A stretch of 64,000 nt of DNA from Tubulanus polymorphus (Eukaryota > Nemertea > Palaeonemertea > Tubulaniformes > Tubulanidae), in assembly GCF_964204645.1 (NCBI RefSeq), contig NC_134033.1, positions 2,291,631 to 2,355,630 of the forward strand, given 5' to 3'. Within the stretch, counting starts at the first letter, position 1. Each line of letters starts with the position of its first letter. Positions 24,842 to 49,634 of the stretch are shown in pieces. The translations under genes were made by a program, and so were the position numbers. The notes below the pieces were generated by a model, which searched no databases, was not told the origin of the DNA, and was given only the letters and a program-made list of their open reading frames with translations.

Positions 24842-25209
24842 TCATTTAATGTGAATATTTTTGATATGCCGTTTAACATCAGAGGACTGACCGAACTGCC
24901 GATCGCAATACGGACATCGATAATTTTTCTGTTTGAGATGCACGTTTTTGTGGTGACGCGACAGCGTGTACGCGTTCGTCAAGACGGCGTTACAGACGTT
25001 GCAGACGAATTTCTCGGCGGAGGAAGCGGTTGTCGAAGCGTTCGGATTCATGGGTACACCGATCAGCGGCGGTACGTAGTAGCGCGATGTCTGCTGGGAT
25101 GTATTTCGCGTCGGGTGACGATGGGCCGAATTCCCCCACGATGCATTGCCGGTCGTCTGCCAAATGTCGCCACCACCGGAACTGCCGCCATGATAGTAAC
25201 TTCGGTTTC
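24842..25209 (-). CDS. zinc-finger gene: terminal exon T10 (two C2H2 fingers)
   Basis: This is the most distal terminal exon found. The acceptor TATTTTCAG|GA is in phase 1; joined to the common exons it gives 359 residues. The first part is Gly/Ser/Thr/Gln-rich linker (YYHGGSSGGG). Two C2H2 fingers follow (CNVC...HHKNVH and CPYC...HIKNIH), each C-x2-C-x12-H-x4-H, joined by LKQKNYR instead of the usual TGEKP linker. The stop follows two residues after the last His, so the fingers form the extreme C-terminus. Confidence 0.85.
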
Positions 25210-25384
25210 CTGAAAATATACATGTTAAATCTAAATGAATTATTCGAATATTTTCGATTAGATTGAGTGGAAGTCACTCGATTATGGCAGGTTTTGATTG
25301 GTCTCTGCCGATTACGAAATTCTCTTCTGGTGCGTTCGTTTCAACCAGAATACGCTCTAACTATTCCGGAATAGTAAAATGTCT

Positions 25385-25768
25385 AAACCTGATTGGTGCG
25401 GCCGGTAGAGAGTTTGTAATCTGTAAACCTGATAGAAGCGGCCGGTAGAGAGTTTGTAATCTGTAAACCCGATAGAAGCGGCCGGTAGAGAGTTTGTAAT
25501 CTGTAAACCCGATAGAAGTGGTCGGTAGAGCGTTAGTAATCTGTACACCCGATAGAAGCGGCCGGTAGAGAGTTTGTAATCTGTAAACCTGATAGAAGCG
25601 GCCGGTAGAGAGTTTGTAATCTGTACACCCGATAGAAGCGGCCGGTAGAGAGTTTGTAATCTGTAAACCCGATAGAAGCGGCCGGTAGAGAGTTTGTAAT
25701 CTGTAAACCTGATAGAAGCGGCCGGTAGAGAGTTTGTAATCTGTAAACCCGATAGAAGCGGCCGGAAT
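25385..25768. repeat. 40-bp minisatellite
   Basis: About ten copies of GATAGAAGCGGCCGGTAGAG plus AGTTTGTAATCTGTAAACC. It lies between terminal exons T10 and T9. Confidence 0.92.
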
Positions 25769-26882
25769 CAGGAATGCGATTCAAAGTGGAATATATTCCA
25801 CCGAAACATCATTGGGTTGTTATTCTTGCGAAACGCAGTATCATCTCTACATATAGAAATCAGCCAACAGAATACCACTTCTAAATATTTGTCAAGATTT
25901 ATTTTTGATATTGATGACGATGATGAATTTTCAAACATTTACACGCAGTTATAATGAACATAATTTATTTATACATAATATATACATATATGTACTGTAT
26001 GCACTAATGTACTCATATTTACCCTGTATCGACATAGAGACCATAAAATGCGTCACAGACTTAACAGGAGATACGATACACTGAACACGGGGCGTGGGGG
26101 TCTTTACAGGGGGAGGGGGAGGGGGTTAAATGAACTCTTAAATGATCGATTCTAGAGCGCACGGTTATACACGTGGTTACGGGGGAGTTGGACGTATCTA
26201 TAGTTTTAAGTTAGAAATATGTTTCGAAGTAAGTAAATGTCCGTAAAAAACTAAAACTTTCATTTAACGAAAACGAAAAGTCAGCGACTCGTGACTTCTA
26301 TTGGCAGCCACAACTAAAATTCGTTATAAGAATTCACGCCACGACGTAGTACCACAGCGAGAAGAGAGCGCCTTCTGCCGCACATATATTTACAATTACA
26401 CGATGTACAAGGTATTAAAACGTCAGAAAATTGAAAAATCAAAGATAGAACTTCGTTCCTGAATCGCGAAACTTGTAAAGGTCGGGGTCGCTTGAAGGTC
26501 GTCGCTTAACCCATTTTGTCTCGGAAATTTTTTCACACGATTCGTAACTTATGAACACAATGATCGTCCGAAGTCAACAGTTAAATCATATTTTGAAAAA
26601 ACTCCACGGTACAGTTTCTGTTGAAAATAACGAGAAATTTACTAAAACAAATCGTGGCGAACAAAACGCTGCACGAAACAGGATTACCGTAACAAAATAA
26701 TCGAGCGAATTCGACGAAACAAAGGACAGGATTTTTCGCAACGAAAAAGAGCGAACACTTTCCAAAAACACATTGAAATTATTACTGAGTCCCTTCCGAA
26801 CGCGGATGGATTGTTTTCACACGTAAGTCACAAAATTGACGGCGATTCCTATATTTTCGAATATTTCATCAGTAACCGACGA
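25769..26882. other. gene-free stretch downstream of T9
   Basis: Probably 3' untranslated and intergenic sequence of exon T9. It contains a G-rich tract (GGGGGAGGGGGAGGGGG at about 26109). No exon seen. Confidence 0.4.
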
Positions 26883-27151
26883 TCAACCAGGTTGCTGCTG
26901 CTGCTGCTGCTGTTGTTGTTGCTGGTGCTGTCTTTGATGGACGTGCAGCAGATGCGATTGCAAGTGGAAATTGTGCCCGAATCTGCGGAAGCACAGCGGA
27001 CACTGGAAATCTCTGATGTTTAAATGCACGGTTTTCTGGTGTCGTTTCAACGTCTGCTTAGTCCGGTAGCCGCGGCCGCACGCCGGGCAGATGTAGTCCC
27101 CGTAGCTGGTTCGTTCGTCGGTCCGCTGGTAGTAGGTCGCCGTCGTAACCG
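26883..27151 (-). CDS. zinc-finger gene: terminal exon T9 (two fingers, polyglutamine tail)
   Basis: The acceptor TATTTTGCAG|CG is in phase 1. The exon has no internal start codon before the fingers, so it only makes sense spliced. It encodes VTTATYYQRTDERTSYGDY, then fingers CPAC...HQKTVH and CPLC...HLLHVH with linker LNIRDFQ. It ends in a run of glutamines from a CAG/CAA repeat and PG-stop. The full isoform would be 326 residues. The repeat is a likely site of length variation. Confidence 0.85.
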
Positions 27152-27439
27152 CTGCAAAATACGAGCAAAAATACTCCGCTAATTCGTTTGAAACTCTAGA
27201 AATTGAAATAGAACGCGCTTAATTCAATCTTGAGGTTTTTTAGTATCCTTTGATATTCCCGAATGGAAGATGGCCGATGAACGTAATTTGGCTACATGTG
27301 CTTATTTCTACTACTACTTCTTGACCGAATTTTAGAAATGTAATTCAAAACGTAAAATAAAAGTTCATGAAAGTTACAATAGTCTTGAGGTTTGCGTGTA
27401 AAGGCGCGTCAAAACGCGCAAGCTAATATCAGTCAGTCG

Positions 27440-27518
27440 TCGAATTCGGGATTCGAACTACGGATCGCACGTGTACCAGCCGGGGCAGTGCTCTAACTAA
27501 TTGACCCATCAGGGCGAG
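27440..27518 (-). repeat. tRNA-like SINE head
   Basis: The minus strand reads GGGTCAATTAGTTAGAGC (A box) and, about 35 bases on, AGTTCGAATCCC (B box). No clean anticodon stem is visible, so it is a tRNA-derived SINE fragment rather than a tRNA gene. Confidence 0.5.
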
Positions 27519-28090
27519 TAATAAAGTGACACTTGAAAATGATAAAACCAAGTACCACGGCTGATAACTGAAAATATATGAGCTTAAATTGAAGAAATTA
27601 ATAGCGAATTTTTTTCTAAAGCAGTAAAATCTTTCTCGCGATAAACCGATGAATAACAAGAAAAGCGATGGCGCCAAACAAAACAGACAGGAGACTAGTC
27701 GAAACTTGTGCTTTTCATCAATTTATCTTGGAAAAAAATATTCACCACTGCTTTTCAGAGACAAGCGACTGTCGTCTGATTCGGGTGAAGAATGCAAAGC
27801 CACCATCGAAGAAAAAAGGGTCAGAGTAATCTAACGTTTCAACTCAAGCGAGCCATTTTCAAAAAAGCTGAAATAATGAATTTTCGAAAAATCGAAGTTG
27901 AAACGCTAAGCTCTATCGAGCCAAACGCAGACGGCGCTGAGAAACCCGGAAACAGAGACGACGGAAATATATTTCCGAGCGATTCCCTGCGCGCGTCGGG
28001 CTGAACACTTTTTCTTCGATTGTATATTGATATTATATTCTTCAGATAGATTCAGTACTCATCCAGATAATCGAAACGATATCTTACGTC

Positions 28091-28467
28091 TCATAGCGAG
28101 AACAGCGTGTCCGTCGAGTCGGTCGTTTTGTTTTTGTCTTTGCGCACTATTTTATGTATGGCGAACATGTGTTTCTCGGCGGCGGTTTTCTGCGCGAACA
28201 GTCTCCGGCAAATCGGGCAGGAGAACTCGCGTATTTTCAAGTGTACAGTGCGCTGGTGTCGTTGCAGGTTGGCCATGCTCGAGTACGACTCGCCGCACGT
28301 GTTGCACGGGTGCTGTTTGGCGGACGAACGCGACAGACGCCGGCGCCGAGGAGTTTTGGGCCGGTGGTGGCCGGTTGTGTTGGTGGTGGCGGCGGGCGCC
28401 GGCGGCGGCGAGGGGAAGTCCGGAAACGGCGGCGGAAAACGCATCAGCGGAAAGTGAGGTCGCCAGC
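28091..28467 (-). CDS. zinc-finger gene: terminal exon T8 (two fingers)
   Basis: Acceptor GTCGTTGCAG|GC, phase 1; full isoform 362 residues. A Pro-rich segment (RFPPPFPDFPSPPPAPAA) and a basic patch (PRRRRLSRSS) precede fingers CNTC...HQRTVH and CPIC...HMFAIH. The linker is LKIREFS. About 20 Lys/Thr/Asp-rich residues follow before the stop. The basic patch could act as a nuclear signal. Confidence 0.85.
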
Positions 28468-28661
28468 CTGCAACGACACAAAAACAAGAAGACCACGATT
28501 TAAAATTTCAGTTCAGCTAGCTTGATACGAGGTTAAGAAATAATTTTGGAGACGAAAAAATTGTCTTTTTCGTATTAAGGACAGAGAATATGTATGATAT
28601 ATATTATGAGTGAATAAACGAAACGGATAGTACTTTATTGGTTAACTTGTTTTTGAAGAAC

Positions 28662-28989
28662 CATCCTCCCCCGGCAGGGATTCGAACCTGATCGCATCGA
28701 GACTCGCCACGGTACGAAACCCTGCCATTCTAGACGGGTGCGTAGGTACATGCGCAGCTTAGGTGATGTCATTATTAGCCAATCAGAAATCCTGTTTTAT
28801 TTTAGCCCGGGTTTTTCCATTTAAAGTTCTTCTTTGAAATTTACCTCAGCAATTATACAACGAGCGATCTGATTGCTGGGGCAAGTTTTCGCTCTGCAAA
28901 CCTGCGCACCCGGTCTGGTGTGGCAGGCGTTCGTGCCGTGGCTGAGTGTAGCGATGCCATCAGGTTCGAGTCCCAGCCGAGGAAGGATG
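28662..28989. mobile_element. 328-bp element with inverted tRNA-like ends (copy B)
   Basis: The reverse-oriented second copy of the 8357-8687 unit. The left end CATCCTCCCCCGGCAGGGA mirrors the right end containing GGTTCGAGTCCCAGCC. The central CAATCAGAAATCCTG...CCCGGG block is the reverse complement of copy A's centre. Confidence 0.65.
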
Positions 28990-30114
28990 GAGCTTTCGCT
29001 ATTAGCTTGTACAATAGCTTCATCTGATGAACGAAGCTACCATACATTAATATATAAAGTCTGCACCAGGTCAACGCGGCTCATCTACGAATCTTCTCAT
29101 CGTGAAAAGTTTCAGAAAAATTACATAAGACACTGTTTTGAAAATACACCTCCCGGAAAGGAAAAAGACCGTATGCCCGGTTGAAGAAATATATAATGCG
29201 TCGTGATAGGCTGTCCGGAGCGAGGGGTTTCAGAGTTTAACACCGATATATGATTCGCGTAAACGTAATCAATTTGATAGAAAAGAAAAAGTCGATCGCC
29301 AATGCAAAACTACGTACATAACCGACACCAGACTATATTTCATCGAACATTCATCAGACAGGGTTTCGTGGAGTAGCGATCGACTGCTTCGGGTGAAGAT
29401 TAAAACCGACAGTAGAAAAAAAACAAACCGTAAGACGATGTCGAATGTTACTATTAAGAGAAATCCAACGACGGAATGACATTTCACCACGCGGTTTACG
29501 AATCGTTTCAACACAGCCAGCAACGCCGCTAACCAAACAAAAACTGACTGAATCGAATAATTTGAATATAAAACGTATTTATTTTCATCATTATCTTTAC
29601 TTTGCACATCTCCCTCTTAATTGAGAAGATTAAAATACAGTTTAAACTTGTGACTACTCGCCTGGAAATCGGTGGAAAGTCAGGGGATTTTATTTCTTTT
29701 CTAAAGTCGAATTTTGTAAAGAAGCTAGAAACCACGGAAAATGTAGGAAAATTTGTTGAGATTGCAGAGTTACCATTCATGTCTTACATATTTGACCGCA
29801 TATATTGATTGGATTCTTAGTAGTCCAAGTCAGGGAAAACGACGTGAATAACTCAGTAACAACCCGTCGCTGTACGAAACGAAGATAATCTATTGTTTTT
29901 TGTTGTTGTTGTCGTTGTAGATCTCGAGAGGAAGATTTCGTTTCGAACGAGTCGCGAGGAATTAATTCGTAAAGGAGTATTAAAAGAGAATTACGACGCC
30001 GATCAAATCGAGCAACAGGAATCACCGTCATTGATTCGTCAGCGTGAATTAGGTATGTTGTGATTCATACAGTTAACTTCGCTTAACTCGGACTTTAAAT
30101 TAGACTAGAACTTA
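28990..30114. other. intergenic or intronic stretch without recognisable gene
   Basis: AT-rich, with chance open frames only. Confidence 0.4.
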
Positions 30115-30333
30115 GGCTAAACAAAAATGATACCTTGTTTCTCCGCAGCGGCCGGGTCATTTTTGTAAAATATGATAAAATTTATAAACAGTTCATTTCT
30201 ATAGCGGCCGGGTCTGTTATGGTGAAATTGATCACGATTTTAAAAAAAGTAATGCATAGGGTAGATAGGCGGCCGGCCGGGTCAACATTTAAGCTCAGCA
30301 GAGCGGAGAAACAAGGTATCAATTTTTTTGGCC
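30115..30333 (+). mobile_element. PIF/Harbinger-like MITE (copy 4)
   Basis: A 219-bp unit with TTA duplications at 30112-30114 and 30334-30336. It is very close to the copies at 10629 and 24064, which points to fairly recent amplification. Confidence 0.78.
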
Positions 30334-31109
30334 TTATATAACAGCGTAAACCTACCGTTTACAACTAAATTCATCGATTATTTCAAAATGATAATTTTCA
30401 ACTAAAAAGATTCATCATAGCTATGAAAAGAAAAACTCGCTTTTTTAATCACGATGCAACAATTACCTTATCATAATCAAAACTGCTTTCTCTGAATGAA
30501 TGATTGAAAAAATTATTTGTAAATTTGCGAAACTTGATGAAAAATGTTTGCGGACGTTCCGTTCGTTGAGTAGAGTTTAATGTCTGCAGGTTATGAAAAA
30601 GAGTCTGCGATTACGTTAAAAAAATTACTGATTTTCATCCTTAAAATGCAATGTCAATAAACAATAAAATGTAGCCGAATCGATCTCCTTTTCGCGACAG
30701 CATCCACTGAAAGCTGATGACTGAATGATGAACTTTTGGTGCACCAAGGTCGCTAGGTCTTTGCTAAATCGACCTTGACATTACAGTTAAGTTGCAGAAA
30801 GAAACGTTCCCGGAAGATCTGGCGAGGAAAATTCAGGATCCAGTTCTACAGTCATGAGTTAGAGTTAACTCTGAGTTGAAATTAGTTCATTTTCAATGAG
30901 TTAACTCTGGGTCGAATCTGAAACTCACAACTGTGGAACTGGGTCCAGATGTTTAACCACGAAAATTCTGGCAACCACAAAGACATCCATTCGATACAGC
31001 AGAATAGACATGTTTAATATTCACAGGTGCGTGCTATAAGACCAACTCTTAAACTTGTACAATTTACATATTCACATGACTGCACATGTTTCTGGATACA
31101 TGTATCACT
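30334..31109. other. stretch without recognisable gene
   Basis: No exon is supported. It contains ATTAGTTCATTTTCAATG at 30881-30898, one of three exact copies in the window. Confidence 0.4.
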
Positions 31110-31254
31110 AACACATGGTAATTCCCCCATTCACATGTGCACCACATGTAAATGTATCCCACCTTTACATGCACATGTATCACACCAAAATTTGTTTATA
31201 TATCCCACTCACATGCTTAACTGTATTGCACCCACATGTACAATTATTCCACCT

Positions 31255-31390
31255 TAAAGCTGATGTATCCCACCCACCACATGTATCCCACCCACCATAT
31301 GTAGCCCACCCACCACATGTATCCCACCCGCCACATGTATCCCACCCACCACACGTATCCCACCCACCACATGTATCCCACCCGCATGTT
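31255..31390. repeat. 17-bp minisatellite
   Basis: About eight direct copies of CACCACATGTATCCCAC, preceded by looser ACATGT-rich DNA from about 31030. Confidence 0.85.
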
Positions 31391-31500
31391 ATACTGTATT
31401 ACATTAAGTACAAGCACATACTATTGATTATATTTGCTCATTTACTGAGATATATCCCCCGTTTGATTGTTATGATTGTGGACTATAGGGGGCGTTGTAT

Positions 31501-31994
31501 TCAGTTATTAGTGGGTAACCGCGCGTGTACTGACACGTCCTCTGTAACGTTATGCACGCGCACCAGGTGGCGCTGTAGCTGTATCGGCTGGCCGTAACGC
31601 TCGCTACAGAACAGACACTTATAGCGACGGATTCCGAGGTGGATGATTTTCATGTGTCGTTTCAGATTGTAAACGTATTTGAACGATTTGCCGCAAATCG
31701 AGCACGTCGCTCCGACTGTCGCCGGCGACACGGTCGGAGCGATCGGCTGCGCCGGAGCCACGGAGCCGTCCATTCGATTCATTAGCGCGTCGACGTCGTC
31801 GATATCCTCGTACGGGTTCGAGATTTGATCCCGCGCGTGGAGCAGGTCATCGTCGTCGTCATCGTCGGCGGTATCGACGATGCGAGATCGCCCTCCTCGT
31901 CTGCGGCGGCCGCGTTCGGACCACGGCGAGGACGAGAATCGACACGAATCACCGACCGTCGCGCGATTCCGCGCCGACACGACCGCGACCATTC
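31501..31994 (-). CDS. zinc-finger gene: terminal exon T7 (two fingers)
   Basis: Acceptor TATTTTGCAG|GA, phase 1; full isoform 401 residues. A long linker has an Arg-rich part (RGRRRRGGRSR), an acidic run (DTADDDDDDD) and a Pro/Ala part. Fingers CSIC...HMKIIH and CLFC...HLVRVH follow with linker LGIRRYK. About 17 residues follow (NVTEDV...LPTNN). T7 shares its second-finger pattern (G-x3-QL-x-RHL-x2-VH) with T5, T6 and the relic exon at 35036-35202, marking a local subfamily. Confidence 0.85.
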
Positions 31995-32847
31995 CTGCAA
32001 AATATAGAGCCACAAACGAAACATCAGTAACGTCTTCCAAATTAGATTTTCACACGAGTATCAGGGGCATCGCTTAAAATATCGAAAAATCTCAAAATAT
32101 CTTCATCGCAAAATCTCATTTTCAGCAGCAATCTTTCGTAAGACAATCTAGATTTACTCGTCAACTGTGACATTCGATGACATTCGAAATTCCATTCCTT
32201 TATTTGTATCTTAAAACACAATTTTCTGGTACACAGAATGATGAATAATCAGCTTCAATACATGTACAGTTAGTACACTCGGTACTCTGCGCTCAAGTTT
32301 GTGTATTTTACCGAAACAAAAATTTGTAAACCTTTAAATTCCCTCATTCTCGACTCGGTGAAACGTCTGAAGCAGTCTTGAAAACAAAGTTATTTTGAAT
32401 TGTTCTTGAATGTGAGAAAATGTCGTAAGGTCACGTGACAGCGGCGGGACGACAGAACGATGCGCGCGTGTAAAAGGCCTTTTCAATATGGCGTCGGTGT
32501 TAGTAATCTGGTTTAGTGAGGTCCGAGGACGATCTCATCACAACAAGGCTAGAAGACTCACAATCGTACCGTTACGAAATGAATCATCGGATTTCTAATT
32601 TTCGACAATTCCGCTTCGCGGGGACCTATCCACAAATGACAGCCATTACGAACGTCGTCTTCACAGAAATTTTCTTTGACGATTCTCAACTCTCAGTAAC
32701 CGTTGAACTCGAGGCAGTATTTACATCCCAAATGTTACCGACTTATGACAGTCTACTGAAATAAATATACCGGGGTGGTCGCTGCCGAGGATTCGAGCAA
32801 AAAAAGCAATTTACTGTTCGTACGAAAAGCATCCGTCTTAATGTCAT

Positions 32848-33248
32848 CTAATACGTCGTGTTCGTGATTCTATGAACTTTGATTAGGTGGCGCGTCAGTT
32901 GCATGGAATAGCCGAACGACTCCGGGCAGAATCGACACGAATGCCGTTTGATTCCCATGTGTACGTAACTCGTGTGTCGGTTCAAACTGTACAGATGTTT
33001 GAAACGTTTTTCGCAGACGTTGCAAACGAATTCCGTCGTCTGCCGAAAAGTTCCGTCGTCTGTCGCAGCGCCGCTGCCGCCGCGCTCGGCGACACCCGCT
33101 AGATCGCCGTGGTAATATGAAGCGTCGCTGTTGTCTCGGTCGTCAACCAGGTGACGCTGATGGTCTCCATGCGCGCGTTGATTGGTTGCTGTCGCTGACG
33201 ACGATTGATAATTAACGTAATGATAGTCTCCGTAGCCTCCGGCCAGTC
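32848..33248 (-). CDS. zinc-finger gene: terminal exon T6 (two fingers)
   Basis: Acceptor TTTTTGTAG|GA, phase 1; full isoform 370 residues. It has no usable start codon of its own ahead of the fingers. A Tyr/Ser/Gln/His-rich linker (GYGDYHYVNYQSSS) leads to fingers CNVC...HTSYVH and CRFC...HLIKVH, linker MGIKRHS, and the tail RITNTTY. A piggyBac-like MITE sits only 43 bp upstream of the acceptor and may have displaced the branch-point region. Confidence 0.85.
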
Positions 33249-33291
33249 CTACAAAAATGCAATTTGAAATCGGTCAAACGACTGTGTTCAA

Positions 33292-33579
33292 CCCTTTCAG
33301 TGTGTCTACATCACAGTGCGGTGTATAAATCCGTGATGGACTATGCTAGTACATCGCATCGCGATGTATTGATGAATTCAGTTTTTATCTCCAATGAAAG
33401 ATGGCAGCACCTGTCAAACATTGTTAAATATTTGTAAACTAACAATTCAGGGCAGAGCAGTGTAGCACCGCGGTGCAGACGCATTATAGCGCTATGCCTG
33501 TTATTCAACGCAATTTTTTAGAGACTTAACATTATCTCCAGCACTTAAATAGGACATTAATGAGTCGGCACTGAAAGGG
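33292..33579 (+). mobile_element. piggyBac-like MITE next to exon T6
   Basis: Ends CCCTTTCAGTG and CACTGAAAGGG, with the family's internal GATGGCAGCACCTGTCAAACA. The left target site has drifted (TTCA), the right reads TTTT, so this is an older copy. Confidence 0.65.
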
Positions 33580-34561: not shown

Positions 34562-34893
34562 TCAATAACCATCATGGCGGCGCAGCCGAGACTGCGCCAT
34601 CACGTTGTTTCGTATCTGATGAACTTTCTCCAGGTGGCGCATGAGTTGCGTTTGGTATCCGTATTTCTCGTCGCAGAACGCGCACTCGTAACGCCGCGCG
34701 TTCAAATGCACGATTTGAACGTGATTTCGAACGTTCGTCGAATTCTTGAAGTTCTTCGCGCAATACGAACACGAGAACGACGACGTCTGCGGTTGATTGC
34801 CGCATGTCTGCTCGATTGCCTCGTAGCGCCCCCACGTGGCGGAATTTTCCCCGGACGGCGGGTATCCGTAATAGAAGGTATCAGCGTCCATGC
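34562..34893 (-). CDS. zinc-finger gene: terminal exon T5 (two fingers)
   Basis: Acceptor ATATTTTGCAG|GC, phase 1; full isoform 347 residues. The short linker (DADTFYYGYPPSGE...) precedes fingers CSYC...HVQIVH and CAFC...HLEKVH with linker LNARRYE, then QIRNNVMAQ and a short Arg/His tail. It is the closest intact relative of the relic exon immediately upstream. Confidence 0.87.
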
Positions 34894-35035
34894 CTGCAAA
34901 ATATCCAGAACACTTTGATTACCACCGGGAATGAAAGCTCAATCGGGAATGAAAGGTCAATCGGGCGACATCAGTGTCGAGGTCACGACCTCAATGTTAA
35001 GGTCACGCATGAAGGAGCCGAATCACGAGCGATTT

Positions 35036-36169: not shown

Positions 36170-36174
36170 TTACA

Positions 36175-37918: not shown

Positions 37919-39336
37919 TTAGTGGTCGATATTTTCATCGATCATCGCGCGTTCGTTCCGTTTATGTTTCTCCGACGCGTAGTGAGACTCGAGATCCTGC
38001 AGCGTACCGATCGACTCGTCGCACACCGCACACTCGAACGGTCCCTGCTGCTCGTGCGCGACGGCCATGTGTCGCATCAGATCGCGACCAGTCGTGAAAC
38101 CCTCGCCGCACGTGCCGCATTCGTAGATCATCTGAACGGCGCTCGCGTCGACCGGCGGGATCGGTAGCGTATCCGCGGCGCCGCCGAGAATGACGTGTCC
38201 GTGCGCGTCCGATTTGTGCGCGTCGAGAAGAGTCTGCCGCGTGAAATGAACGTTGCATTTGTCGCAGGAGAAAACGCGATTCAGATTTGCAAGTAATCCG
38301 TCTGCCGGAACAACAGCGTCTGCTCGTACTAATCCGTCTGCCGAGACAACAGTGTCTGCTCGTACTAATCTGTCTGCTTGTACTAATCCGTCTGCCGAGA
38401 CAACAGCCTCTGTTCGTACTAATCCGTCTGCCGAAACAACAGAGTCTGCTCGTACTAATCCGTCTGCCGAGACAACAGCGTCTGCTCGTACTAATCCGTC
38501 TGCTGAGACAACAGCGTCTGCTCGTACTAATCCACCTGCTTGTCGCGTGGGAACCTCATCCTCGCCAATACGGTTTACCGAGCTCAGTCTATGGCAGTGT
38601 TTATCGTGCTGTCGGTATTTCTCGAGCGTTTCGAACTGTTGCGCGCACGCGCGACACGAGAACGGCAACGGATCGAGCGCCGACTTCGAATGAACAAACT
38701 GAACGTGGCGTTGCAACGACACGCGATCGGTGAACGGCTTCGCGCAGATATCGCACGGCCAGATTTTCACCTTCAATCGCCCGCTGTACCGCTCGGCGTG
38801 CACGACCACCAGGTGGCGCTTCAGGTCGTATTCGCGTTGGAATTTACGCGCGCACTCCGGGCAGGCGAAGCGACGCGCGCGTTCGTGTATCCCGGCGACG
38901 TGTCGGTACGCATTCGGGCAGTGTTTGAATTCCGCGCGACAAAGGCGGCAGACGTACGAACGAACGCCGGTTACCGGGTCGACGATCGTTTCGATTTGAT
39001 CCTTCGTCGTTTGCGTGTAGGCCGTCGATTTTTTACGATCGCCGCACGACGACGACGGAATCAACGTCGCCAGATCGGTCGTCGAAGCTTTCCGATATTT
39101 TCCGTCGCATGCGTACATGACCGTTTTCTCGCGCGTCAATTTCGACGACGACGGATTCCGCGACACGTGAACGTCGTGCGCGGCGGTCAGGTGATCCTTC
39201 AAGGCGCCGCGCGATACGAAATAATCGCGACACAGCGGACACCGTACACTGATCCGCGTCGTCGATCCGTTCGCCGAACCCTCGTCACCGGAACCGTCCG
39301 TTTCGTTTCCATGTCGTTTCGAAGGCTCAACGGAAC
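37919..39336 (-). CDS. zinc-finger gene: terminal exon T4 (8 fingers, coding minisatellite)
   Basis: Acceptor CTGTCATTTCAG|GT, phase 1; full isoform 709 residues. Eight C2H2 fingers can be read: CPLC, CRLC, CPEC, CDIC and CRAC; then, after a gap, CDKC, CGTC and CAVC. Between fingers 5 and 6 lies a 12-residue tandem repeat (about seven copies of ADGLVRADAVVS and variants), encoded by a 36-bp minisatellite at about 38294-38545. The linkers between fingers are not TGEKP-like. Spacing of the last finger is H-x5-H. Regulation would be by choice of this exon over the other nine. Confidence 0.83.
38294..38545. repeat. 36-bp in-frame minisatellite inside exon T4
   Basis: About seven copies of CTGCTCGTACTAATCCGTC plus TGCCGAGACAACAGCGT on the plus strand, with one 18-bp partial copy. 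The period is a multiple of three, so copy-number change would not break the protein. Confidence 0.9.
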
Positions 39337-39692
39337 CTGAAATGACAGGAAACTAGAAAATAAATATCACGGTTCGCACCAACGCAATGTGTATAGCTTT
39401 ATAGCCTCAAAATGGCTGCCAGGCAGTGACAAGGGTTTTAACCGTGTGACGAGGGTTTTCTAAATAATCTAAAAATTTCAATAAAAGCCAACTTAAGTTT
39501 TTTAATTACATATTCTAACTTTCTTTAAAATTATTAGACCAATGCACCATTTATAACTACTATTCCTCGATGAGGGGAAAATTTCAAGTTCGCCGGGAAA
39601 AATTTTTTCAATTTTGACTGAAAAGGAATGACTGAACTGATCGCGATCGAAAAATCCCGAGCTCGTTAAAAACAGTCACCGCACCTGATGAC

Positions 39693-41029
39693 TTACTCCT
39701 GATCGCCTGGCGACGGTTCCACTGGCTGCTCACAGATGGAGCCGTCGTCTTGCTGCATGACGTAAATAATCTGCGGTTGTTGCTGATTCGGGTCGGTCTG
39801 CTCAGAGATTGCGGTTGCGTCGGCAACGTTGCCGCCGTTATTAACCTCGTCCAGCTGCACGGCCGACGCAATAATCGACAGCAACTGCTGCTTGGCGTCG
39901 TCGTCGATATCCATATCCTCGGTCGCCGCGGCCGAGATCGTCTCGATACCGTCGCCGCCGTCCTCCGACTTCACGTAACCGACGGAAACCGGTTCGAAGT
40001 GGTGCATCTTCAACAGCTCGTCCTGCGTCAGCGGCTCGTCGCTCGTCTTCGACGTCACCGTCTGGTGCCGCGCGCTCAACAGGTGGCGCTTCAGGTCGTG
40101 TTTCTGCGCGAACGTCTTGCCGCACACGTAGCACATGAAATGGCGTTTGCCCTCGTGTACGTTGCGTTTGTGGCGCGTCAGGTTCGTTTCGGCGTTGAAC
40201 ACCTTTTCGCACTGGTCGCACGCGAACTTCTCCGAGTCCTCGACGTGCTGTCGCAGGATGTGCGACTTCAGGTCGTCCTCGCGCGAGTACTCCTTACCGC
40301 AATGGCCGCACACGAAGTCGCGTATATCCGTGTGTATCGACTTGTTGTGGCGTTCGAGGTTGCGTTTCGAGTAGAACGTCTGCAGACAGATGCCGCACGC
40401 GTAAACCTTGGCCGTGCCGTCCGCGTTGTGCGTGTTCTTCAAATGCCGGTTGAGGTCTTCGTTGCGTTTGAACGACTTGTTGCAGTCGGCGCGCGGGCAC
40501 GGGTAGTTGCGCTCCTGCTGGTGAACGGTGGACATGTGGCGCTGGACGTTGCGCGGCGAGTGGAACAACTTGCCGCAAACGTCGCACGGGTGATCGGCGA
40601 CGCGCGTCGCGCCGTCGACCGGGTGGCAGTTTTTGCGATGCGCCGTCAGGTAGTCGGAACGCAGGAACGTTTTCGCACAGATGTCGCACATCAACGAGTA
40701 CGTCTTCTCGTGGAAGCCCTCGACGTGACGAATCAACGAACGCTTCAACTTGAACGTGCGGTCGCAGCCCTCGTACGTGCACGACCAGAACTCGTCGGGC
40801 ACCGGCGCGACGCCGTGCGCCGTCTCGCGGTGTTTAACGTACGCGGCGCGATCGGTGAACCGCTCGTCGCAGTCGGCGCAACGCAAGTCGACGTTGTGGT
40901 CGATTTTGATGTGCGTTTCGAGCGATTGCTCGAGCGTGAATTTTTTCGGACACTCGGGACAGTAGTGCGTCGACAACGCGGCGAGCACGCGCTGCTTTAC
41001 TTGTTTGTCTTTCTCTTCGCGGCTCAGCT
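39693..41029 (-). CDS. zinc-finger gene: terminal exon T3 (10 fingers)
   Basis: Acceptor TGTCTTTACAG|AG, phase 1 (junction residue Glu, the one non-Gly/Ala case); full isoform 682 residues. A short charged helix (LSREEKDKQVKQRVLAAL) precedes ten C2H2 fingers. Fingers 3 and 6 are of the C-x4-C type (CTYEGC, CPRADC). An acidic/Gln-rich tail follows (EDMDIDDDAKQQ, QTDPNQQQPQ). An ATG lies 22 bases upstream in the intron, but it is not needed if the exon is spliced. It could instead be a separate gene with its own start; the matching phase argues against this. Confidence 0.82.
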
Positions 41030-42207: not shown

Positions 42208-43532
42208 CTACTTCGTGTCGACAATTTGCCGTACGATCTGCTGTATATTCTCCGCCGCCTGCTCCTCGTCCATTTCCTCCTCCTCCACCGCCACCTCGTC
42301 GTCGTCCTCGATCTCCTGCTTCGGCGTGCGAACGTAAATGACCTTCGGCTTGTGTTTCTTGCGGTAGTGCGTCTGCAGCTGGTCGGTGCGGTTGAAATTC
42401 TCGCCGCACGCGTCGCAGATCAGCTGCCGCGCGCCCTCGTGTATCGTCGCCAGGTGGCGCTCTAAACCGCGCGTCGACGAGAACTCCTTGTCGCAGATGT
42501 AGCAGACGGGCCGGTCGGAGGTGTCGTCGTACTCCAACGCCTCGTCGGCGTAATCGACCGGCGCTCCCGGTTCGAGGTGCTCGTTCAGGAAATGCCGGTT
42601 CAACGCGATCGGGTCGCCGTACGCCTGCTGGCATTCCGCGCAGTTGTGCTCGGCGTCGTTAGCGCTCTTGTGTTCGGCGTACAGATGCTTCAACGCGTCG
42701 TCGATCTTCGAGAACGCGAGACCGCAGATTTTACAGATGACCGTGCAGTCGTCGGTGAACACGGACGTCGCGTACGCGAAATCGTCGCCGAACAATTTCT
42801 TCAAGTGTTCCTCCGAGCGCAGATGCGCAAGGAGTATGTCGCGCGTGAGGAACCCGACGCGACACAACGTGCAGCCGAGCACCTTCTGGTGCGTCGCCTC
42901 GTGCGCGTCGAGCTCGGCCTGCGTGCCGAACCGGTGCCGGCAACTCGCGAAGTTACACGCGAACTTGAAATCCTCGGAGAAGCTGCGCTTGGCGCCGGGG
43001 AACACGCCGACCGACTCGTCGTTGTCGTGTTGCGCGGCGAGATGCCGCATCAGCTGCGGCTTACGACGGAACGCGATGCCGCAGCTGCGACAGCCGTACG
43101 GCCGCACCTGCAGGTGTTTCTCCATCACGTGGCGGTCCTTGTTCGTCGCGTTGTCGTAGATCTTGCCGCAGAACTCGCACGTGCACCGCGTCACCGAGCG
43201 GTACTCGCCGACCGGCGCGCGTTTACGCCTGACGATCTTCTCGCCGGCGAGCGTGTCCTCCTCGTGCGCGGCGAGCAGGTGCTCGACGAGGTATTCCTTG
43301 CGTTTGAACGACATCGCGCAGTGCTCGCAGTCGTACGCCGGCGTCGCCGCCGGTTCGTGTACCTCGCGCACGTGGCGTTTACAATTGAACAGCGTCGTGA
43401 ACGTTTTCTCGCAGTACGTGCACTTCGTGGTCGTGTTGCGTCGCGACGGCACGGTCGGAGTCCGAGGCGGAGTCCGCGTCGCCGAGTCACCCGATGACGA
43501 ACGTAGTTTCATTAGGATTTTTTGCGTAAGAC
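42208..43532 (-). CDS. zinc-finger gene: terminal exon T2 (10 fingers)
   Basis: Acceptor CTGTCTTTCCAG|GT, phase 1, followed by LTQKILMKLRSSSGDS; full isoform 678 residues. Ten C2H2 fingers follow a Thr/Pro/Arg-rich start: CTYC, CEHC, CEFC, CRSC, CNFASC (C-x4-C), CTLC, CKIC, CAEC, CYIC and CDAC. The C-terminus is acidic (EIEDDDEVAVEEEEMDEEQ). The exon has strong CG bias, which creates long open frames on the opposite strand. An internal start MKLRSS is possible, but the exon reads through from the acceptor. Confidence 0.82.
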
Positions 43533-43954
43533 CTGGAAAGACAGGGAAGAGCGTTTGTTTTTAGTTTTTTTTTCTTTTTGCACCGATTTTGTGTTTCTCT
43601 TAAAATCCCGAAATATAAATCGGGCGTGTAATTTTTTCGCGGGGGACGTGGACCGAATCGAAACCCGAGACGGCGGGAAATATTTCGGGGGATTTTTCTC
43701 ATTTCAATATCTAAATTTTCGAACAAAGTTTACTCTTCACCTGTCGTTTCCAGGAACGAAAAAAAAAGAAGACGAAGTCAGCTGAAATTTTGAAAGTCAC
43801 GAACGCCGGGTCGACTCGCTGAATACGGGTCATCACGGATTTACGCAGTTGTGATAAATCTTACCCACGAGAAATTTCTCATCATAACCGGAAAAAAGAT
43901 GATGTTTGATGCGCTCCGACTTGGAAAATGATTTATATCTTGGCATCCCGGAAA
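43533..43954. other. intronic spacer upstream of T2
   Basis: No exon is supported here. Confidence 0.4.
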
Positions 43955-44390
43955 ATGGTCTTAGATCTTAAGACTGGTCGTAAGCTGTTTGATTGGCTAT
44001 AGAACCAAGATGAACTTAAGACTAGTCGTAAGCTGTTTGATTGGCTATAGAACCAAGATGAACTTAGACTGGTCGTAAGCTGTTTGATTGGCTATAGAAC
44101 CAAGATGAACTTAAGACTGGTCGTAAGCTGTTTGATTGGCTATAGAACCAAGATGAACTTAAGACTGGTCGTAAGCTGTTTGATTGGCTATAGAACCAAG
44201 ATGAACTTAGACTGGTCGTAAGCTGTTTGATTGGCTATAGAACCAAGATGAACTTAAGACTGGTCGTAAGCTGTTTGATTGGCTATAGAACCAAGATGAA
44301 CTTAAGACTGGTCGTAAGCTTTTTGATTGGCTATAGAACCAAGATGAACTTAAGTCTGGTCTTAAGTTGTTAGATTGGCTATGATTGCCA
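43955..44390. repeat. 48-bp minisatellite array
   Basis: About nine copies of GACTGGTCGTAAGCTGTTTG plus ATTGGCTATAGAACCAAGATGAACTTAA, two of them two bases short. Degenerate relatives continue to about 44510, partly inverted. The same unit family occurs at 18140-18350 and 48460-48650. Confidence 0.92.
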
Positions 44391-44510
44391 AGGTTTTACA
44401 GTCTTAACAACTCAAGACTAGTCTCAACTCATTTTGGTTCTATAGCTACCGCTTTGGAACCAAAATGAGTTAAGACTGGTCTTAAGTTGTTTAGGCTGTA
44501 AAACCTCAAT

Positions 44511-45574
44511 CATTTTAAAATAGTCTCAAATCCAGCGCCGGGAGGCTCAGTTGCAGTCAGGACTTCCAAAGCCTAAGTACGGTCTTTCATTTAACTGCTA
44601 CACGTAGAGATTGGCTAAAGAACCACGTTAGACACGGTTTTAAATCTTAGCCAGTCGCTGCGCTAACTGAATCCAGGAATCGCAACAAATATCAATCATC
44701 GGGAATCACGACTTTTCTCGTTAAGACAGAGTTAACCATAGATTCAAATAGATATTGCGCACACGCGGGTAAACATTTTTATATTTTTAAGTACACTTTT
44801 TTATTTTCCTGTAAATGATTCTTTTTTTTTTGTTACATTCGAGAATAAATCGAACTCGGTCGGTCGATCCGGAACTACTATATATAAGACATGCAAAAAA
44901 TGCAAAAATTGCTCTCTCGCTCTGTTCTGTCCAGCCCGCCCGCCCTCCCTCCTCGTAAAATAAATAAATAGTGACAACATGTATACAAAAGATATTCAGG
45001 ACTAGCGTTCATAAAAATGATATGATTAAAATGGAGCTCGTTGCTGCTACGGGGGCCAAGTGCTCAAATTGTTCGTGGCTTTCATCGACATTTCACGATT
45101 AAAATTGAATCAAATTGTTTTTGACATCGAGTAAATGATCAGTCAGCAATTTTAACACCGACCAAATATTAAGAGTAAAGTTTTTTCACTCTATTTGGAT
45201 TCGCATTTCAAAGTTGATCACCGAGGTTCATATGAAAATTGGGGCTACATTTGCTCAAAAAATGGTTCGAGTCCGAACGTCGACGTAGCGACAATTCGAA
45301 GTTCATCGTTATTACGACATTCATTCGTCGTTTATCTCGAGTCGATGAGCCCCCGATTCCGATGGAAAAAATCACGACGCCATCTGGTGACGGACCGCCC
45401 GAATCGTAACAAGCCCCATTTTCAACGCAGGGAATAAAAACATTGAATTCAATTCGAACACGAGATGAAGACGAAAATCGTTTTGAGAACGAGACAAAAA
45501 ATGCGGCTAAAATTTTCCGAAAAGTTTTTCTTTTTTTATCCGAGAAAATCTTCGCGATAACCTCTGCGGGGATC
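44511..45574. other. stretch downstream of T1
   Basis: Likely the 3' untranslated region of T1 and spacer. It contains a CT-rich tract at about 44912-44957. No exon seen. Confidence 0.4.
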
Positions 45575-46116
45575 CTACGACTGGGCCAACATCAGATCGA
45601 TGTGCGGATCGAAATCCGGTGGCGGGAGATTCTCATTCGAGAAAACCATCGCGGCTGCGGCATTAGACGTAGGTGGTGGCGCCACCGAGCGAGTAATGGC
45701 AGACGTACCGTCCGTCTGCTGGTGCGCGATCAGAGCGGACGGCGACGCGACGACCGCCGGCGCCGACGTCGTTACGCCGAGCGCGCTGCCCGAACAATGT
45801 CTCGACTGGTGGCGTTTCAGATTGAACGACTGGCCGAAGCTCTTTCCGCAGCCGTTACAATGGAACTTACGCACGCCGACGTGCACGGTCATGTGATGTC
45901 GGCGCATCGTGTGTAAATGCATGAACGACTGTCCGCAGTGATTGCAGTAGTAAAGCGACGCCGGGTCGACGCCACGTTTCGCAGCGATGCCGCGTTTCGT
46001 CGCCGATTTACGCGGCGTCGTCGTCTGGCCGCGGACGCCGCCGTCTGCTGCTGCCGTCAATAGCCGACCGTCGCCGCCGCCCTGGTGGTGGTAGTAACGT
46101 GCCATCGGATCGGCCC
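45575..46116 (-). CDS. zinc-finger gene: terminal exon T1 (two fingers)
   Basis: This terminal exon is nearest the common part. Acceptor CTCTACTTGCAG|GG, phase 1, reading ADPMARYYHHQGGG; full isoform 417 residues. Fingers CNHC...HHMTVH and CNGC...HQSRH (the second H-x3-H) are joined by VGVRKFH. Unlike the other pair exons, a long tail of about 85 Ser/Ala/Thr/Pro-rich residues follows the fingers, ending in PHIDLMLAQS. The tail could be an activation or interaction surface (inference). Confidence 0.86.
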
Positions 46117-47314
46117 CTGCAAGTAGAGGCAAGAGACGAACGATCAGATCAGTTGACACAAACACGGGCAGCAGACGAGCGTGGTCAGCCAGCAGACGGA
46201 CTGGTTAACGGGCAGACGGGCTGGTCAGCTGGCAGACGACAGGACCATTCAATTCCAAGAGCAGACGGACTTGGCTTAAAAAAGCCGGTGGACCGCTCGG
46301 CAGACGCATTACCCGAAGAAATAGTCCAAGCTTAGAAATCTCAGACCGGGAACAGCTACTGAACCCGCCAGCACATTAGGCCTATAAATTAGTCAAAAGG
46401 GAAGACTGACCGGCCAACGACCAGTCGACTTACAACGAAGTCCCAAGAAATTCCTTCTTAAATTGAGACAAGATTTCGAATTCATCTTAAACCGCCGCGC
46501 GGCGAAATCGAATTCCATTTCGGATTCGAAATTCCGATGACCGAAAGAAACTTCAAAATATTCGGGAAAAAAAAAAACGGAAATATTTCCCGGCGCCCAC
46601 TCGAAAATCATTACGAAAACCGACGACGACGAAAACGTTATTTCCGAACCTGGAAACTTTTAAAATGACAGGATTTTTCTCCGTTTTGAGTTCGAAACTT
46701 TTTATCCATTTTACACAGGTTGACATATACACAAAATACAAAATCGAAAGCAGTATTTTTTACTTTGAGTGTCATCTAGAAAATGATCCTAGGGTCCCTG
46801 ATATGCCAAATGAAACTACAACCCTCAACCTGAGAATGAGTTCTGAACAAATTTCGTATCCAAAGAATCAAAGTTGAAGAGAATTGGCCGCATTTTTTAG
46901 TAGTTTGAACTTTCGAGTTCGGCAAAAATACTGCTTCGGAATAGAATATGCTCAGAAATTTCACATTGCGGTTTGAATGAAGACTTTAGGAGCGGAGGAC
47001 AGTTTTATGATAAATTCGATTCTCTTCATGACTTTCCGATGACCTTCCAGCATTTGAACACGATTCTTCCGAAACTGAACTCTCAGGTAGGAAGTCGGAC
47101 AGAGGAGTAGACGGGTGGGGAGAGGAGGCTCATTAAGAGAGGAGAGGGAAAAAAATGAGAGGGAAACAGAGAGTTCAAATGAAACTTTCGTTTTCGAATT
47201 CAAATTTTGTCTAATTTTTCGAGAACAAACTGGTCGTAAAATTTCCGAGCATTTTTTAAAAGAAGACTTTACGAGAAGATTTTTTATTTTGGTAAAAAGT
47301 TATCGAGTACGCAC
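46117..47314. other. intron between common exon 3 and T1
   Basis: No further exon is supported. A CAGACGG-rich patch lies at about 46170-46310. Confidence 0.45.
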
Positions 47315-47857
47315 CTGCTAGATTGTGACTGGTTCCGGGCTGCGGTTCCTGACTGTCGCTCCACGACGACTGCGTGTCCAAACCGGTCTGCTCCAACGCG
47401 GCGAAACTGTTATCAGCGGTCGTCACGGCCGACGCGTACGTCGACACGTCCGCCGTCTGCATAGCAACGCGTCGACGCTGCGGCGTCTGCTGATACGCGG
47501 TCGGCGTCATCGCGTTGCTGCCCGACGTTTTGCGTTTGCGGCCGCCGCGCGACACGGCGGCTGCCGCCGATTTTTGTCCGCGCGTCATCAGTTTTTGTTG
47601 CTCGGCGCCCGACGGTTCGTTTTTGATATTTTGCACGATGCGGTTGACGATGTTGTCCTTTTTATTGTTCGTCGTCGACGACGATTCGCCTACGCTGAAT
47701 TCGCCTTCCTGCCACGCGATGTCGCCCTCCTCGGCGGCACCCGGGTATTCCGGTTTAGTCGTGTATTCGTGGTCCTGGCTCTGATTTTCGAGGTCCATCA
47801 CCTCGTTGATGGCGGTTTGCGCCGTCGCCTGAAATTCTTCGTTGTCATATTCCTCGC
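47315..47857 (-). CDS. zinc-finger gene: common exon 3 (linker and nuclear signals)
   Basis: Acceptor ATTTTTCCAG|GC and donor CTAGCAG|GTGCGT; 543 bp, phase 1 at both ends. It codes residues 58-237 of every isoform. The N-terminal part is acidic (EEYDNEEF, EEGDIAWQEGEF). The motif IKNEP at about 134-138 fits a SUMO-attachment consensus. Basic patches GGRKRK (about 161-166) and QRRR (about 183-186) could be nuclear signals. The rest is Ser/Thr/Gln-rich and probably disordered. There are no zinc fingers, so DNA binding depends wholly on the terminal exon chosen. The donor leaves a single G, completed to Gly, Ala or Glu by each terminal exon. Confidence 0.85.
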
Positions 47858-48459
47858 CTGGAAAAATAATTTTCGACCGAATCGAAAATTTAACAAAATC
47901 TTCAAACCACTTATTCATGAGGCTTTTAATCAATTTTATTGATTATTCTATATTTTACGTTATGTTATACAATTGTAAATACTTCTTGATGTCCCTCTGT
48001 ATACCTCTCATCGAGGTGATGAGTGTAAATAAATTTCAATTTCAATTTCAATTCATTAACAAAGGTCTGGGCTTCAAATCGTTCATTCTCGGAGTTTTAA
48101 AGGAGAAAATTTCAAGAAAGTGTAGGCATCACTTTCATATTCTCAATTACTGTAGACTACTCCTAAATCGGTACTGTTTATCTCAGTTAACCGTTAATTC
48201 GGTGATTTTTGTAAGCAAATTTCTATTCTATTCATTACCTTAACCCGGTTTCTAATTCGGTAAGAAAAAAAAAATCCGCTCGCGATTGTATCAATTTACG
48301 GGTAGCTTCTAAACAGCTAAAAACTGGACAAGAATTCCTACTTATTTCTCTCAAAATTGGAGGAGTTTCGGGCATTTTGCTCAAATCAAAAGAGTTTCAA
48401 GCACCTATTAAATTTTTGATTTATTAGAAGGAAACCAGGGGACAGTCGTGACTTAAGTA
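47858..48459. other. intron between common exons 2 and 3
   Basis: AT-rich; short TTTCAA repeats at about 48030-48050. No exon. Confidence 0.5.
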
Positions 48460-48650
48460 CAAAAGTGGTCTTGGTTAGATTAGCTATAGAACTAAGTTGG
48501 TCTTAGACTGGTCTTAAGTCTAAGCCATGACTATGCAACTGGCCCTGAAGTCCGAAAGTGGTCTTCATTCTTAAGACTGGTCTTAAGTTGTGAGATTGGC
48601 TATCGAACTAAGTTTGTCATATAGAACTAAGCCATGACTATGCAACCTGC
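48460..48650. repeat. degenerate GACTGGTCTTAAG minisatellite
   Basis: Imperfect copies of the unit seen at 43955-44390, with TAGACTGGTCTTAAG and GATTGGCTAT landmarks. It lies in intron 2 of the zinc-finger gene. Confidence 0.65.
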
Positions 48651-48724
48651 CACTGAAGTTATAGCGGCCCGAGTCACGACCCCACAACTGGGGCGCGGCA
48701 CTGCGTCACTCGACAAATACTGAC

Positions 48725-48865
48725 CGTCGCTGGTGCAAGATCGACGCGATTTCGAACGTTCTTCCTGCCATTCGTGCCACGTTTCGTCGTCCGCCGATAA
48801 AACGATACTATCCAATAATCCTTTATGATTCCAGATGCACTCGATCAGCGTTCCTTCCGGAATAT
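48725..48865 (-). CDS. zinc-finger gene: common exon 2
   Basis: Acceptor GTAATTGTAG|AT and donor GCGACG|GTCAGT; 141 bp, phase 1 at both ends. It codes residues 10-57, including IPEGTLIECIWNHKG and SADDETWHEWQEERS. The Trp/acidic pattern does not match BTB, KRAB, SCAN, ZAD or other N-terminal domains I know from zinc-finger proteins. It may be a small protein-interaction module. If the donor were skipped, the frame stays open for some distance, so the exact donor deserves checking. Confidence 0.7.
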
Positions 48866-49005
48866 CTACAATTACATACAACACAATACACATATATACC
48901 CTATTCAAAGATTTAGACTTCTTCGTCATCCTACAATATAGTGCAAAATGGATTAAAAAACCTATGTCTTAGATCTGTATAATATACCTTTACTGGTCCT
49001 ATTAA

Positions 49006-49080
49006 CCCTTTCAGTGCGTCTACACCGCAGTGCGTTGTATAAATCAGTGATTGACTTTGCTAGTACACCCCATTGCACAT
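49006..49080 (+). mobile_element. truncated piggyBac-like MITE
   Basis: Left end CCCTTTCAGTGCGTCTACACC after TTAA at 49002-49005. It breaks off after about 75 bp. It lies in intron 1 of the zinc-finger gene. Confidence 0.6.
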
Positions 49081-49131
49081 TTCAAATACATTTACATAAA
49101 ACAAACAGGGGAAATTCCGGTAGAGGTTTAA

Positions 49132-49406
49132 CCCTTTCAGTGCTTCTTCACCGCAATGCATAAATCAAAGATAGATTTTGCTAGTACGCCGCACTTAGGT
49201 GCATTGATGTAATTAGTTATCTCTTTCGAAAAATGGCAGCACCTGTCAAACATAGTGAAATACTAGTCACTAACGATACGCCGCACCGTGGTGTAGATGC
49301 ACTATAGAGGTATTCCCGTTATTCAACACACTAGGGTGGAATTTTTTTAAATTTTCAAAATTATCTCCAGCACTATAGGGTATTGATTAGTCAACACTGA
49401 AAGTGT
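49132..49406 (+). mobile_element. piggyBac-like MITE in intron 1
   Basis: Preceded by TTAA (49128-49131), with left end CCCTTTCAGTGC. The interior GGCAGCACCTGTCAAACATAG is shared with the other copies; the right end is degraded (CACTGAAAGTG). Confidence 0.7.
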
Positions 49407-49550
49407 GAAGACCTATATCATAAGGTAAATAATACCAAACCTGACTGGGCTAGGCCAACTGATATATGCTCTCGAGCTACGTTGAAATTCAGCGCAAGTT
49501 GTGCAATTGAGAAATGTTACCCTGCAACCTTCGAAGCATTTCGAACTTAC

Positions 49551-49634
49551 CTAACGTTAAATTCGATAATACGACCATTTTTTATTCGATGTTTTATACG
49601 TTCGCAGCTCGCGTGAAAAACTAAACCAAATCCT
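49551..49634 (-). CDS. zinc-finger gene: first coding exon
   Basis: A poly-T/CAG acceptor at 49635 opens the exon. An ATG at 49578 in good context (AAAAATGG) starts MVVLSNLTL, then donor TTAG|GTAAGTTC at 49551 leaves one base (phase 1). The codon two before the ATG is TAA, in frame, so this transcript form cannot carry an upstream domain such as BTB. Only nine full codons are encoded. At least one non-coding 5' exon must lie upstream of 49634. Another promoter splicing straight to exon 2 cannot be excluded. Confidence 0.6.

What the first reader, a model, noticed from the sequence alone, without database searches (positions are those of the whole stretch)
24842..49578. lola-like zinc-finger gene with ten phase-matched alternative terminal exons
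Three common exons (712 coding bases, leaving one base over) are followed on the same strand by ten exons. Each begins after an AG acceptor with two bases completing that codon, and each ends in its own stop. Adding 712 to each exon length (542, 1325, 1337, 1418, 332, 401, 494, 377, 269, 368) always gives a multiple of three. Exons T6 and T9 have no start codon before their fingers, so they must be spliced to something upstream. Known parallel: the insect BTB genes lola, Broad and mod(mdg4). That the common exons join all ten is inference.
Basis: partly seen in the sequence, partly recalled or inferred. Interest (0 to 1): 0.9.

Follow-up and report, generated by a model that had tools for sequence, protein, structure and literature searches.

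The report
One gene, ten swappable zinc-finger ends
An animal gene appears built so that one shared front end can be spliced to any of ten different DNA-binding zinc-finger endings, as in the insect gene lola, but without a sign of the BTB domain that defines the insect genes.

Summary
In detail: three common exons (28+141+543=712 nt) and ten downstream exons, all open in the predicted phase, each ending in its own stop. In 10 of 10 exons the best-scoring acceptor in the permissible interval is the phase-matched one; 17 of 275 control ORFs reach that strength and phase. The exon-3 donor is the best of 32 GTs. T3, T4, T6 and T9 have no in-exon ATG before their fingers; for T4, T6 and T9 the whole open frame has none. 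T1 and T5-T10 form a two-finger exon family; T2-T4 carry 10, 10 and 8 fingers by pattern. Most likely: one transcription-factor gene choosing among ten alternative last exons.

"Lola-like" holds for the working principle, not for membership: the common 237 aa have no Pfam match, in-frame stops precede the ATG, no BTB was found in six frames of the window, and no relative of the common part was found. New variant of a known kind.

The parts
49635..49651 (-). strong acceptor (14 T, then CAG) before exon 1; implies an upstream untranslated exon or a spliced-leader site
   Evidence: score 10.4, top 0.06% of 3146 minus-strand AGs; sequence
49551..49634 (-). exon 1: 56 nt 5'UTR with three in-frame stops, ATG at 49578, 28 coding nt
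   Evidence: donor in the top 0.11% of minus-strand GTs
48725..48865 (-). common exon 2, 141 nt, symmetric phase 1-1
   Evidence: acceptor (score 2.0, top 10%) and donor (2.5, top 2%) only moderate; single-sequence model beta-beta-alpha, low confidence
47315..47857 (-). common exon 3, 543 nt, symmetric phase 1-1; donor at 47315 for all terminal exons
   Evidence: donor best of 32 GTs, 5.8 against 2.8 for the next; acceptor moderate (3.2, top 5.7%); mostly low-confidence model
45575..46116 (-). T1 terminal exon, two C2H2 fingers
42208..43532 (-). T2 terminal exon, ten C2H2 fingers by pattern
39693..41029 (-). T3 terminal exon, ten C2H2 fingers by pattern; no in-exon ATG before the fingers
37919..39336 (-). 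T4 terminal exon, eight C2H2 fingers by pattern; in-frame minisatellite; no ATG before the fingers
34562..34893 (-). T5 terminal exon, two fingers
32848..33248 (-). T6 terminal exon, two fingers; no ATG before the fingers
31501..31994 (-). T7 terminal exon, two fingers
28091..28467 (-). T8 terminal exon, two fingers
26883..27151 (-). T9 terminal exon, two fingers, poly-Q tail; no ATG before the fingers
24842..25209 (-). T10 terminal exon, two fingers; last of the array
   Evidence: not given to Pfam

Best explanation
A single animal gene on the minus strand encodes a family of C2H2 zinc-finger transcription factors. Shown from sequence: a common 237-residue N-terminal part (three exons, every junction phase 1) and ten terminal exons, each with a strong phase-1-compatible acceptor, a zinc-finger array and its own stop. 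Inferred: the donor at 47315 is spliced in cis to one acceptor at a time; choosing one terminal exon means using its own cleavage and polyadenylation site, while the exons passed over are skipped as intron. All isoforms would then share the partner-binding or effector surface of the N-terminus (low-complexity, rich in A/S/T/E/Q, possibly with a small folded piece from exon 2) and differ in DNA target. The seven two-finger exons probably arose by local exon duplication; the three 8-10-finger exons are a second, more distant group.
For: Phase match in 10 of 10 with the best acceptor against 17 of 275 controls; open joined frames; donor best of 32; no ATG in the open frame before the fingers of T4, T6, T9, and none inside the exon for T3; GC3 0.59-0.86 in the ten exons against GC 0.32-0.54 in their 300-nt flanks; conserved zinc ligands and a linker of constant length in T1 and T5-T10, T5/T6/T7 most alike (46-52%); helix residues -1,2,3,6 different for each of the seven two-finger exons; no further module in the window; composition of the common part.
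Against: No RNA. No orthologue with isoforms was found. The acceptors of common exons 2 and 3 (2.0 and 3.2) are weaker than all ten terminal acceptors, and the exon-2 donor is only moderate. T4 and T9 have close second acceptors in another phase. AATAAA/ATTAAA within 1500 nt of the stop in 8 of 10 exons is no more than chance (0.848 of random windows). T2 and T3 hold fairly good internal GT sites (score 5.0 each); that of T3 at 40298 is phase 1, so T3 could also be spliced on to a later exon. T1, T2, T5, T7, T8 and T10 have an ATG before their fingers and could have starts of their own.
Confidence: 0.78

Rival explanations
1. A tandem cluster of separate zinc-finger genes, each with its own promoter and an unfound short first exon; the common exons belong to one of them (for instance T1).
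For: C2H2 genes commonly lie in tandem clusters (general knowledge); T2-T4 are long and could be whole proteins; six of ten exons have an ATG before the fingers.
Against: Ten of ten share one splice phase with strong acceptors; T4, T6, T9 have no ATG in the open frame before the fingers, T3 none within the exon. A first exon for each of these, all ending in phase 1, would be needed; I did not search for such exons systematically.
Confidence: 0.08
2. Same isoform set, but terminal exons are transcribed from promoters of their own and joined to the common exons by trans-splicing, as reported for mod(mdg4) and lola.
For: The architecture is the one in which trans-splicing is documented (PMC4667647 and PMC11426971, passages); the ten acceptors are spread over 20.9 kb, which leaves room for internal promoters.
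Against: All ten exons lie on one strand downstream of the donor, so cis-splicing suffices; PMC4667647 (passages) describes cis-spliced mod(mdg4)-like homologues in Daphnia, beetles and Hymenoptera.
Confidence: 0.06
3. Only some of the ten (for instance the seven two-finger exons) belong to the gene; T2-T4 are inserted multi-finger genes whose phase matches by chance.
For: T2-T4 have 8-10 fingers and stand apart from the two-finger family; T4's acceptor has a close rival in another phase.
Against: T2 and T3 have acceptors scoring 9.0 and 6.2, T4 4.7, all phase-matched; T4 has no ATG before its fingers.
Confidence: 0.08

Closest known systems
lola (longitudinals lacking), Drosophila
   Same: Common N-terminal exons joined to one of many C-terminal exons, most with zinc fingers; about 20 isoforms (PMC1947980, passages read).
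   Different: lola's common part carries a BTB domain and some of its fingers are C2HC; here no BTB, the seven pairs are C2H2-C2H2, and three exons carry 8-10 fingers. Three finger-less isoforms are known in lola; none was recognised here.
fruitless, Broad-complex, tramtrack (insect BTB-ZF genes)
   Same: Shared N-terminus with alternative two-finger C-termini (fruitless: PMC7027472, passages; Broad and tramtrack recalled).
   Different: BTB domain present in those; fewer alternative finger exons (recalled).
mod(mdg4)
   Same: Common 5' exons and many alternative 3' exons (PMC4667647, passages).
   Different: FLYWCH instead of C2H2 arrays, BTB present, some exons on the other strand, trans-splicing.
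ZFP64 (vertebrate)
   Same: Recalled only: alternative terminal exons with different finger arrays.
   Different: Recalled: few alternatives. Of the 20 papers listed only one holds the word ZFP64, and it was not opened.

Membership tests
lola / insect BTB-ZF genes | N-terminal BTB domain in the common exons | tested here: not met
   Pfam: 0 families in the 237 aa; in-frame stops upstream of the ATG; scan of 1570 six-frame ORFs (>=25 aa) with a profile of three fish ZBTB14 and one recalled lola BTB, best E 0.38, and with each singly, best E 1.5. A BTB exon beyond the window spliced straight to exon 2 is not excluded.
lola / insect BTB-ZF genes | Common 5' exons followed by many phase-compatible alternative terminal exons | tested here: met
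   (sequence only, no RNA)
lola / insect BTB-ZF genes | C-terminal zinc-finger pairs | tested here: met
   7 of 10 exons carry two fingers, 3 of 10 carry 8-10
lola / insect BTB-ZF genes | Sequence orthology to lola | tested here: inconclusive
   No match of common+T5, nor of common residues 1-100, in the protein collection, whose search needs shared 5-residue words; no lola protein was aligned directly
lola / mod(mdg4) | Trans-splicing | not testable with these tools
   needs phased transcripts
mod(mdg4) | FLYWCH domains in the variable exons | tested here: not met
   Pfam on T1-T9, 9 of 10 exons: no FLYWCH among the families listed (at most the best 25 per protein). T10 was not given to Pfam.

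The most novel reading that the evidence does not exclude
The 'one common N-terminus, many interchangeable DNA-binding C-termini' gene design evolved independently of the BTB domain, in an animal outside the arthropods, with a previously undescribed N-terminal domain doing the partnering and with both two-finger and ten-finger modules as alternatives.
Probability: 0.4. Interest if true: 0.78.

Novelty: new variant of a known kind. Interest (0 to 1): 0.6.

Why it matters
In the papers whose passages I saw, the lola/fruitless/mod(mdg4) design is treated together with its BTB domain, and the TTK-type BTB of that group was reported only from Arthropoda (PMC11426971, passages). A BTB-free gene with the same design would show that exon-switching of DNA-binding modules does not depend on BTB, and would give an independent system for asking how one donor chooses among ten last exons.

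Tried and rejected
Relatives: the 5.8-billion-protein collection was searched with common+T5 (1013 candidates, none at E<=0.001), with common+T7 limited to residues 1-100 (50 candidates, none at E<=10), and with T3 (103 of 3796 candidates at E<=0.001; where named they are multi-finger proteins, mostly of animals, two of fungi; best local identity 25-39%). Of those 103 I read three in full; none looked like an orthologue, and the rest were judged by name and identity alone. PDB by sequence: common part none at E<=1; two-finger profile 165 matches, the 60 shown being known or designed C2H2 proteins by name.

Structure: exon 2 alone gave a beta-beta-alpha model, mean pLDDT 72.9, pTM 0.32; Foldseek found no PDB match at E<=0.001, best E 1.3, so no fold is claimed. 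Exon 3: mean pLDDT 55.8, 150 of 180 residues below 70. Both were folded without an alignment.

Poly(A) signals were considered as support and dropped as uninformative. Extra terminal exons without fingers: among 47 AGs scoring >=4 between 47314 and 20000, 12 open a matching-phase frame of >=50 aa; ten are T1-T10, the other two lie inside the 40-bp tandem repeat at 25.4-25.8 kb with GC3 0.46, rejected. Shorter exons were not looked for.

Literature: search listings only (4 of 4 listed; 9 of 9; 0; 2 of 2; 20 of 55; 20 of 260; 20 of 25; 10 of 10; 6 of 6); by titles and abstract starts none is about such a gene outside arthropods. Passages were read of PMC11426971, PMC1947980, PMC7027472 and PMC4667647 only. 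The library lacks most subscription papers.
Full report
WHAT IS THERE. On the minus strand the common exons are 49578-49551 (28 nt), 48865-48725 (141 nt) and 47857-47315 (543 nt). Their 712 nt encode 237 residues and leave one base. Ten downstream exons, T1-T10, each supply two bases after an AG and then an open frame that runs to its own stop; all ten joined frames have a single terminal stop. After 28, 169 and 712 nt one base is always left over, so all three junctions are phase 1 and exons 2 and 3 are symmetric.

IS IT MORE THAN CHANCE. For each terminal exon I listed every AG between the in-frame stop upstream and the first finger (2 to 14 per exon) and scored it with a generic acceptor score written from general knowledge. 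The phase-matched AG ranked first in 10 of 10; scores run from 4.3 to 9.2. Two runners-up are close and in another phase: T4 (4.2 against 4.7) and T9 (6.1 against 7.7). Among 275 control ORFs of at least 60 aa (both strands, minus-strand ORFs that overlap a terminal exon left out) 67 have a best acceptor of at least 4.3, split 26/24/17 over the phases, so 17 of 275 would pass both tests. A scan between donor and array end, without reference to fingers (score >=4, ORF >=80 aa), gives 11 matching-phase AGs, of which 10 are the ten exons; the other phases give 4 and 4, the antisense strand 3, 1 and 4. Looser settings discriminate less: at score >=4 and >=50 aa the totals are 12, 11, 9 and on the other strand 6, 6, 6; at score >=3 and >=80 aa they are 12, 5, 5 and 7, 3, 9. 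At score >=5 and >=80 aa they are 7, 2, 0 and 1, 0, 1, but only seven of the ten exons pass. Thresholds were set with the ten in view. The exon-3 donor is the best of 32 GTs in its open frame, 5.8 against 2.8. The acceptors of exons 2 and 3 (2.0 and 3.2) are weaker than those of the ten.

START CODONS. T3, T4, T6 and T9 have no ATG inside the exon before the first finger. For T4, T6 and T9 the open frame upstream of the acceptor has none either; T3 has one on the intron side. They need an upstream exon (if non-ATG starts are left aside); together with the common phase this is the best sequence argument that they belong to the common exons.

THE TERMINAL EXONS. By pattern they carry 2, 10, 10, 8, 2, 2, 2, 2, 2 and 2 fingers, 42 in all. 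T1 and T5-T10 align as one family with conserved zinc ligands and seven residues between the last H of finger 1 and the first C of finger 2, mostly of the type L-x-I-R-x-(F/Y)-x rather than the classical TGEKP linker (recalled). Identity of the finger pairs is highest among the neighbours T5/T6/T7 (46-52%); T8/T9 have 42%, equalled by T7/T9, and the other pairs 25-40%. This fits local exon duplication without proving it. T2, T3 and T4 resemble one another at 23-38% in local alignments, which for C2H2 arrays says little. Predicted contact residues (-1, 2, 3, 6) differ in each of the seven two-finger exons, so the alternatives should differ in DNA target (inference from the known C2H2 recognition geometry). 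GC3 of the ten exons is 0.59-0.86, their 300-nt flanks have GC 0.32-0.54. T4 holds an in-frame minisatellite. A profile of the two-finger module found the ten exons and nothing else of note (next E 0.23) in 1570 six-frame ORFs of the window, so the array appears complete. T2 and T3 contain internal GT sites scoring 5.0; the one in T3 (40298) is phase 1 and could in principle be joined to a later terminal exon, so the isoform set may be larger than ten.

THE COMMON PART. Pfam finds no family, the PDB has no sequence match, and two protein-collection searches found no relative. Exon 1 begins 56 nt upstream of the ATG at a very strong acceptor, with three in-frame stops in those 56 nt. Translation through this exon therefore starts at 49578 and no domain can be added upstream in that transcript. 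A BTB search of 1570 six-frame ORFs of the window, with three fish ZBTB14 domains and one recalled lola domain, gave nothing (best E 0.38); a profile of four sequences is not very sensitive. Exon 2 alone is modelled as beta-beta-alpha at modest confidence without significant PDB matches; exon 3 is mostly low-confidence apart from helical stretches.

HOW IT MOST LIKELY WORKS. One pre-mRNA; the donor at 47315 is joined to one of ten acceptors, and the choice is coupled to use of the poly(A) site after that exon. Shown: exon structure, phase, open frames, fingers. Inferred: that the splices occur, that the choice is regulated, that isoforms differ in DNA target and share an effector surface. Poly(A) hexamers do not help: 8 of 10 exons have one within 1500 nt, as do 85% of random windows.

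WHAT IT WORKS LIKE AND WHAT IT IS. It works like lola (common exons plus about 20 C-terminal alternatives; PMC1947980, passages) and fruitless (two fingers unique to each isoform; PMC7027472, passages). It is not shown to be a member: the BTB domain was tested and not met. The TTK-type BTB of that group was reported not to occur outside Arthropoda (PMC11426971, passages). The genome of origin could not be searched.

On rereading the calls I lowered the best explanation from 0.82 to 0.78 and trimmed two rivals, because I had left out the phase-1 internal donor in T3 and the close second acceptors of T4 and T9, and because the odds summed to more than one. The linker length was corrected from six to seven residues and the spread of acceptors from 22.5 to 20.9 kb.

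Noticed in passing
52193-53137, 54774-55739, 59062-60024, 61330-62292 (-): Four apparently intronless rhodopsin-family receptor ORFs (7tm_1) in tandem; by eye similar to each other, not aligned.
   Followed up: partly
57241-58239 (+): A further receptor-like ORF matching 7TM_GPCR_Srw, on the opposite strand inside that cluster.
   Followed up: partly
12777-13454, 14110-14883, 17215-17991 (-): Three alpha/beta-hydrolase ORFs (Abhydrolase_3), possibly last exons of a tandem gene cluster (inference).
   Followed up: partly
7411-7872 (-): An ORF with a weak match to fibronectin type I (E 0.00066, below Pfam's cut-off).
   Followed up: no
54403-54476 and 56660-56733 (+): Two tRNA-Arg(CCT) genes about 2.3 kb apart.
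   Followed up: no
38294-38540 (-): Coding minisatellite (36/54/90-bp periods) inside T4, kept in frame between two groups of fingers.
   Followed up: no
43967-44382 and 25384-25765: Tandem arrays of 48-bp and 40-bp units in the predicted introns before T2 and T10.
   Followed up: no
49635-49651 (-): Acceptor with 14 T directly upstream of the first coding exon; could be a spliced-leader site rather than a normal intron end.
   Followed up: no
40298 (-): Internal GT site in T3 (GCG|GTAAGG, score 5.0) in phase 1, compatible with the later terminal exons.
   Followed up: no
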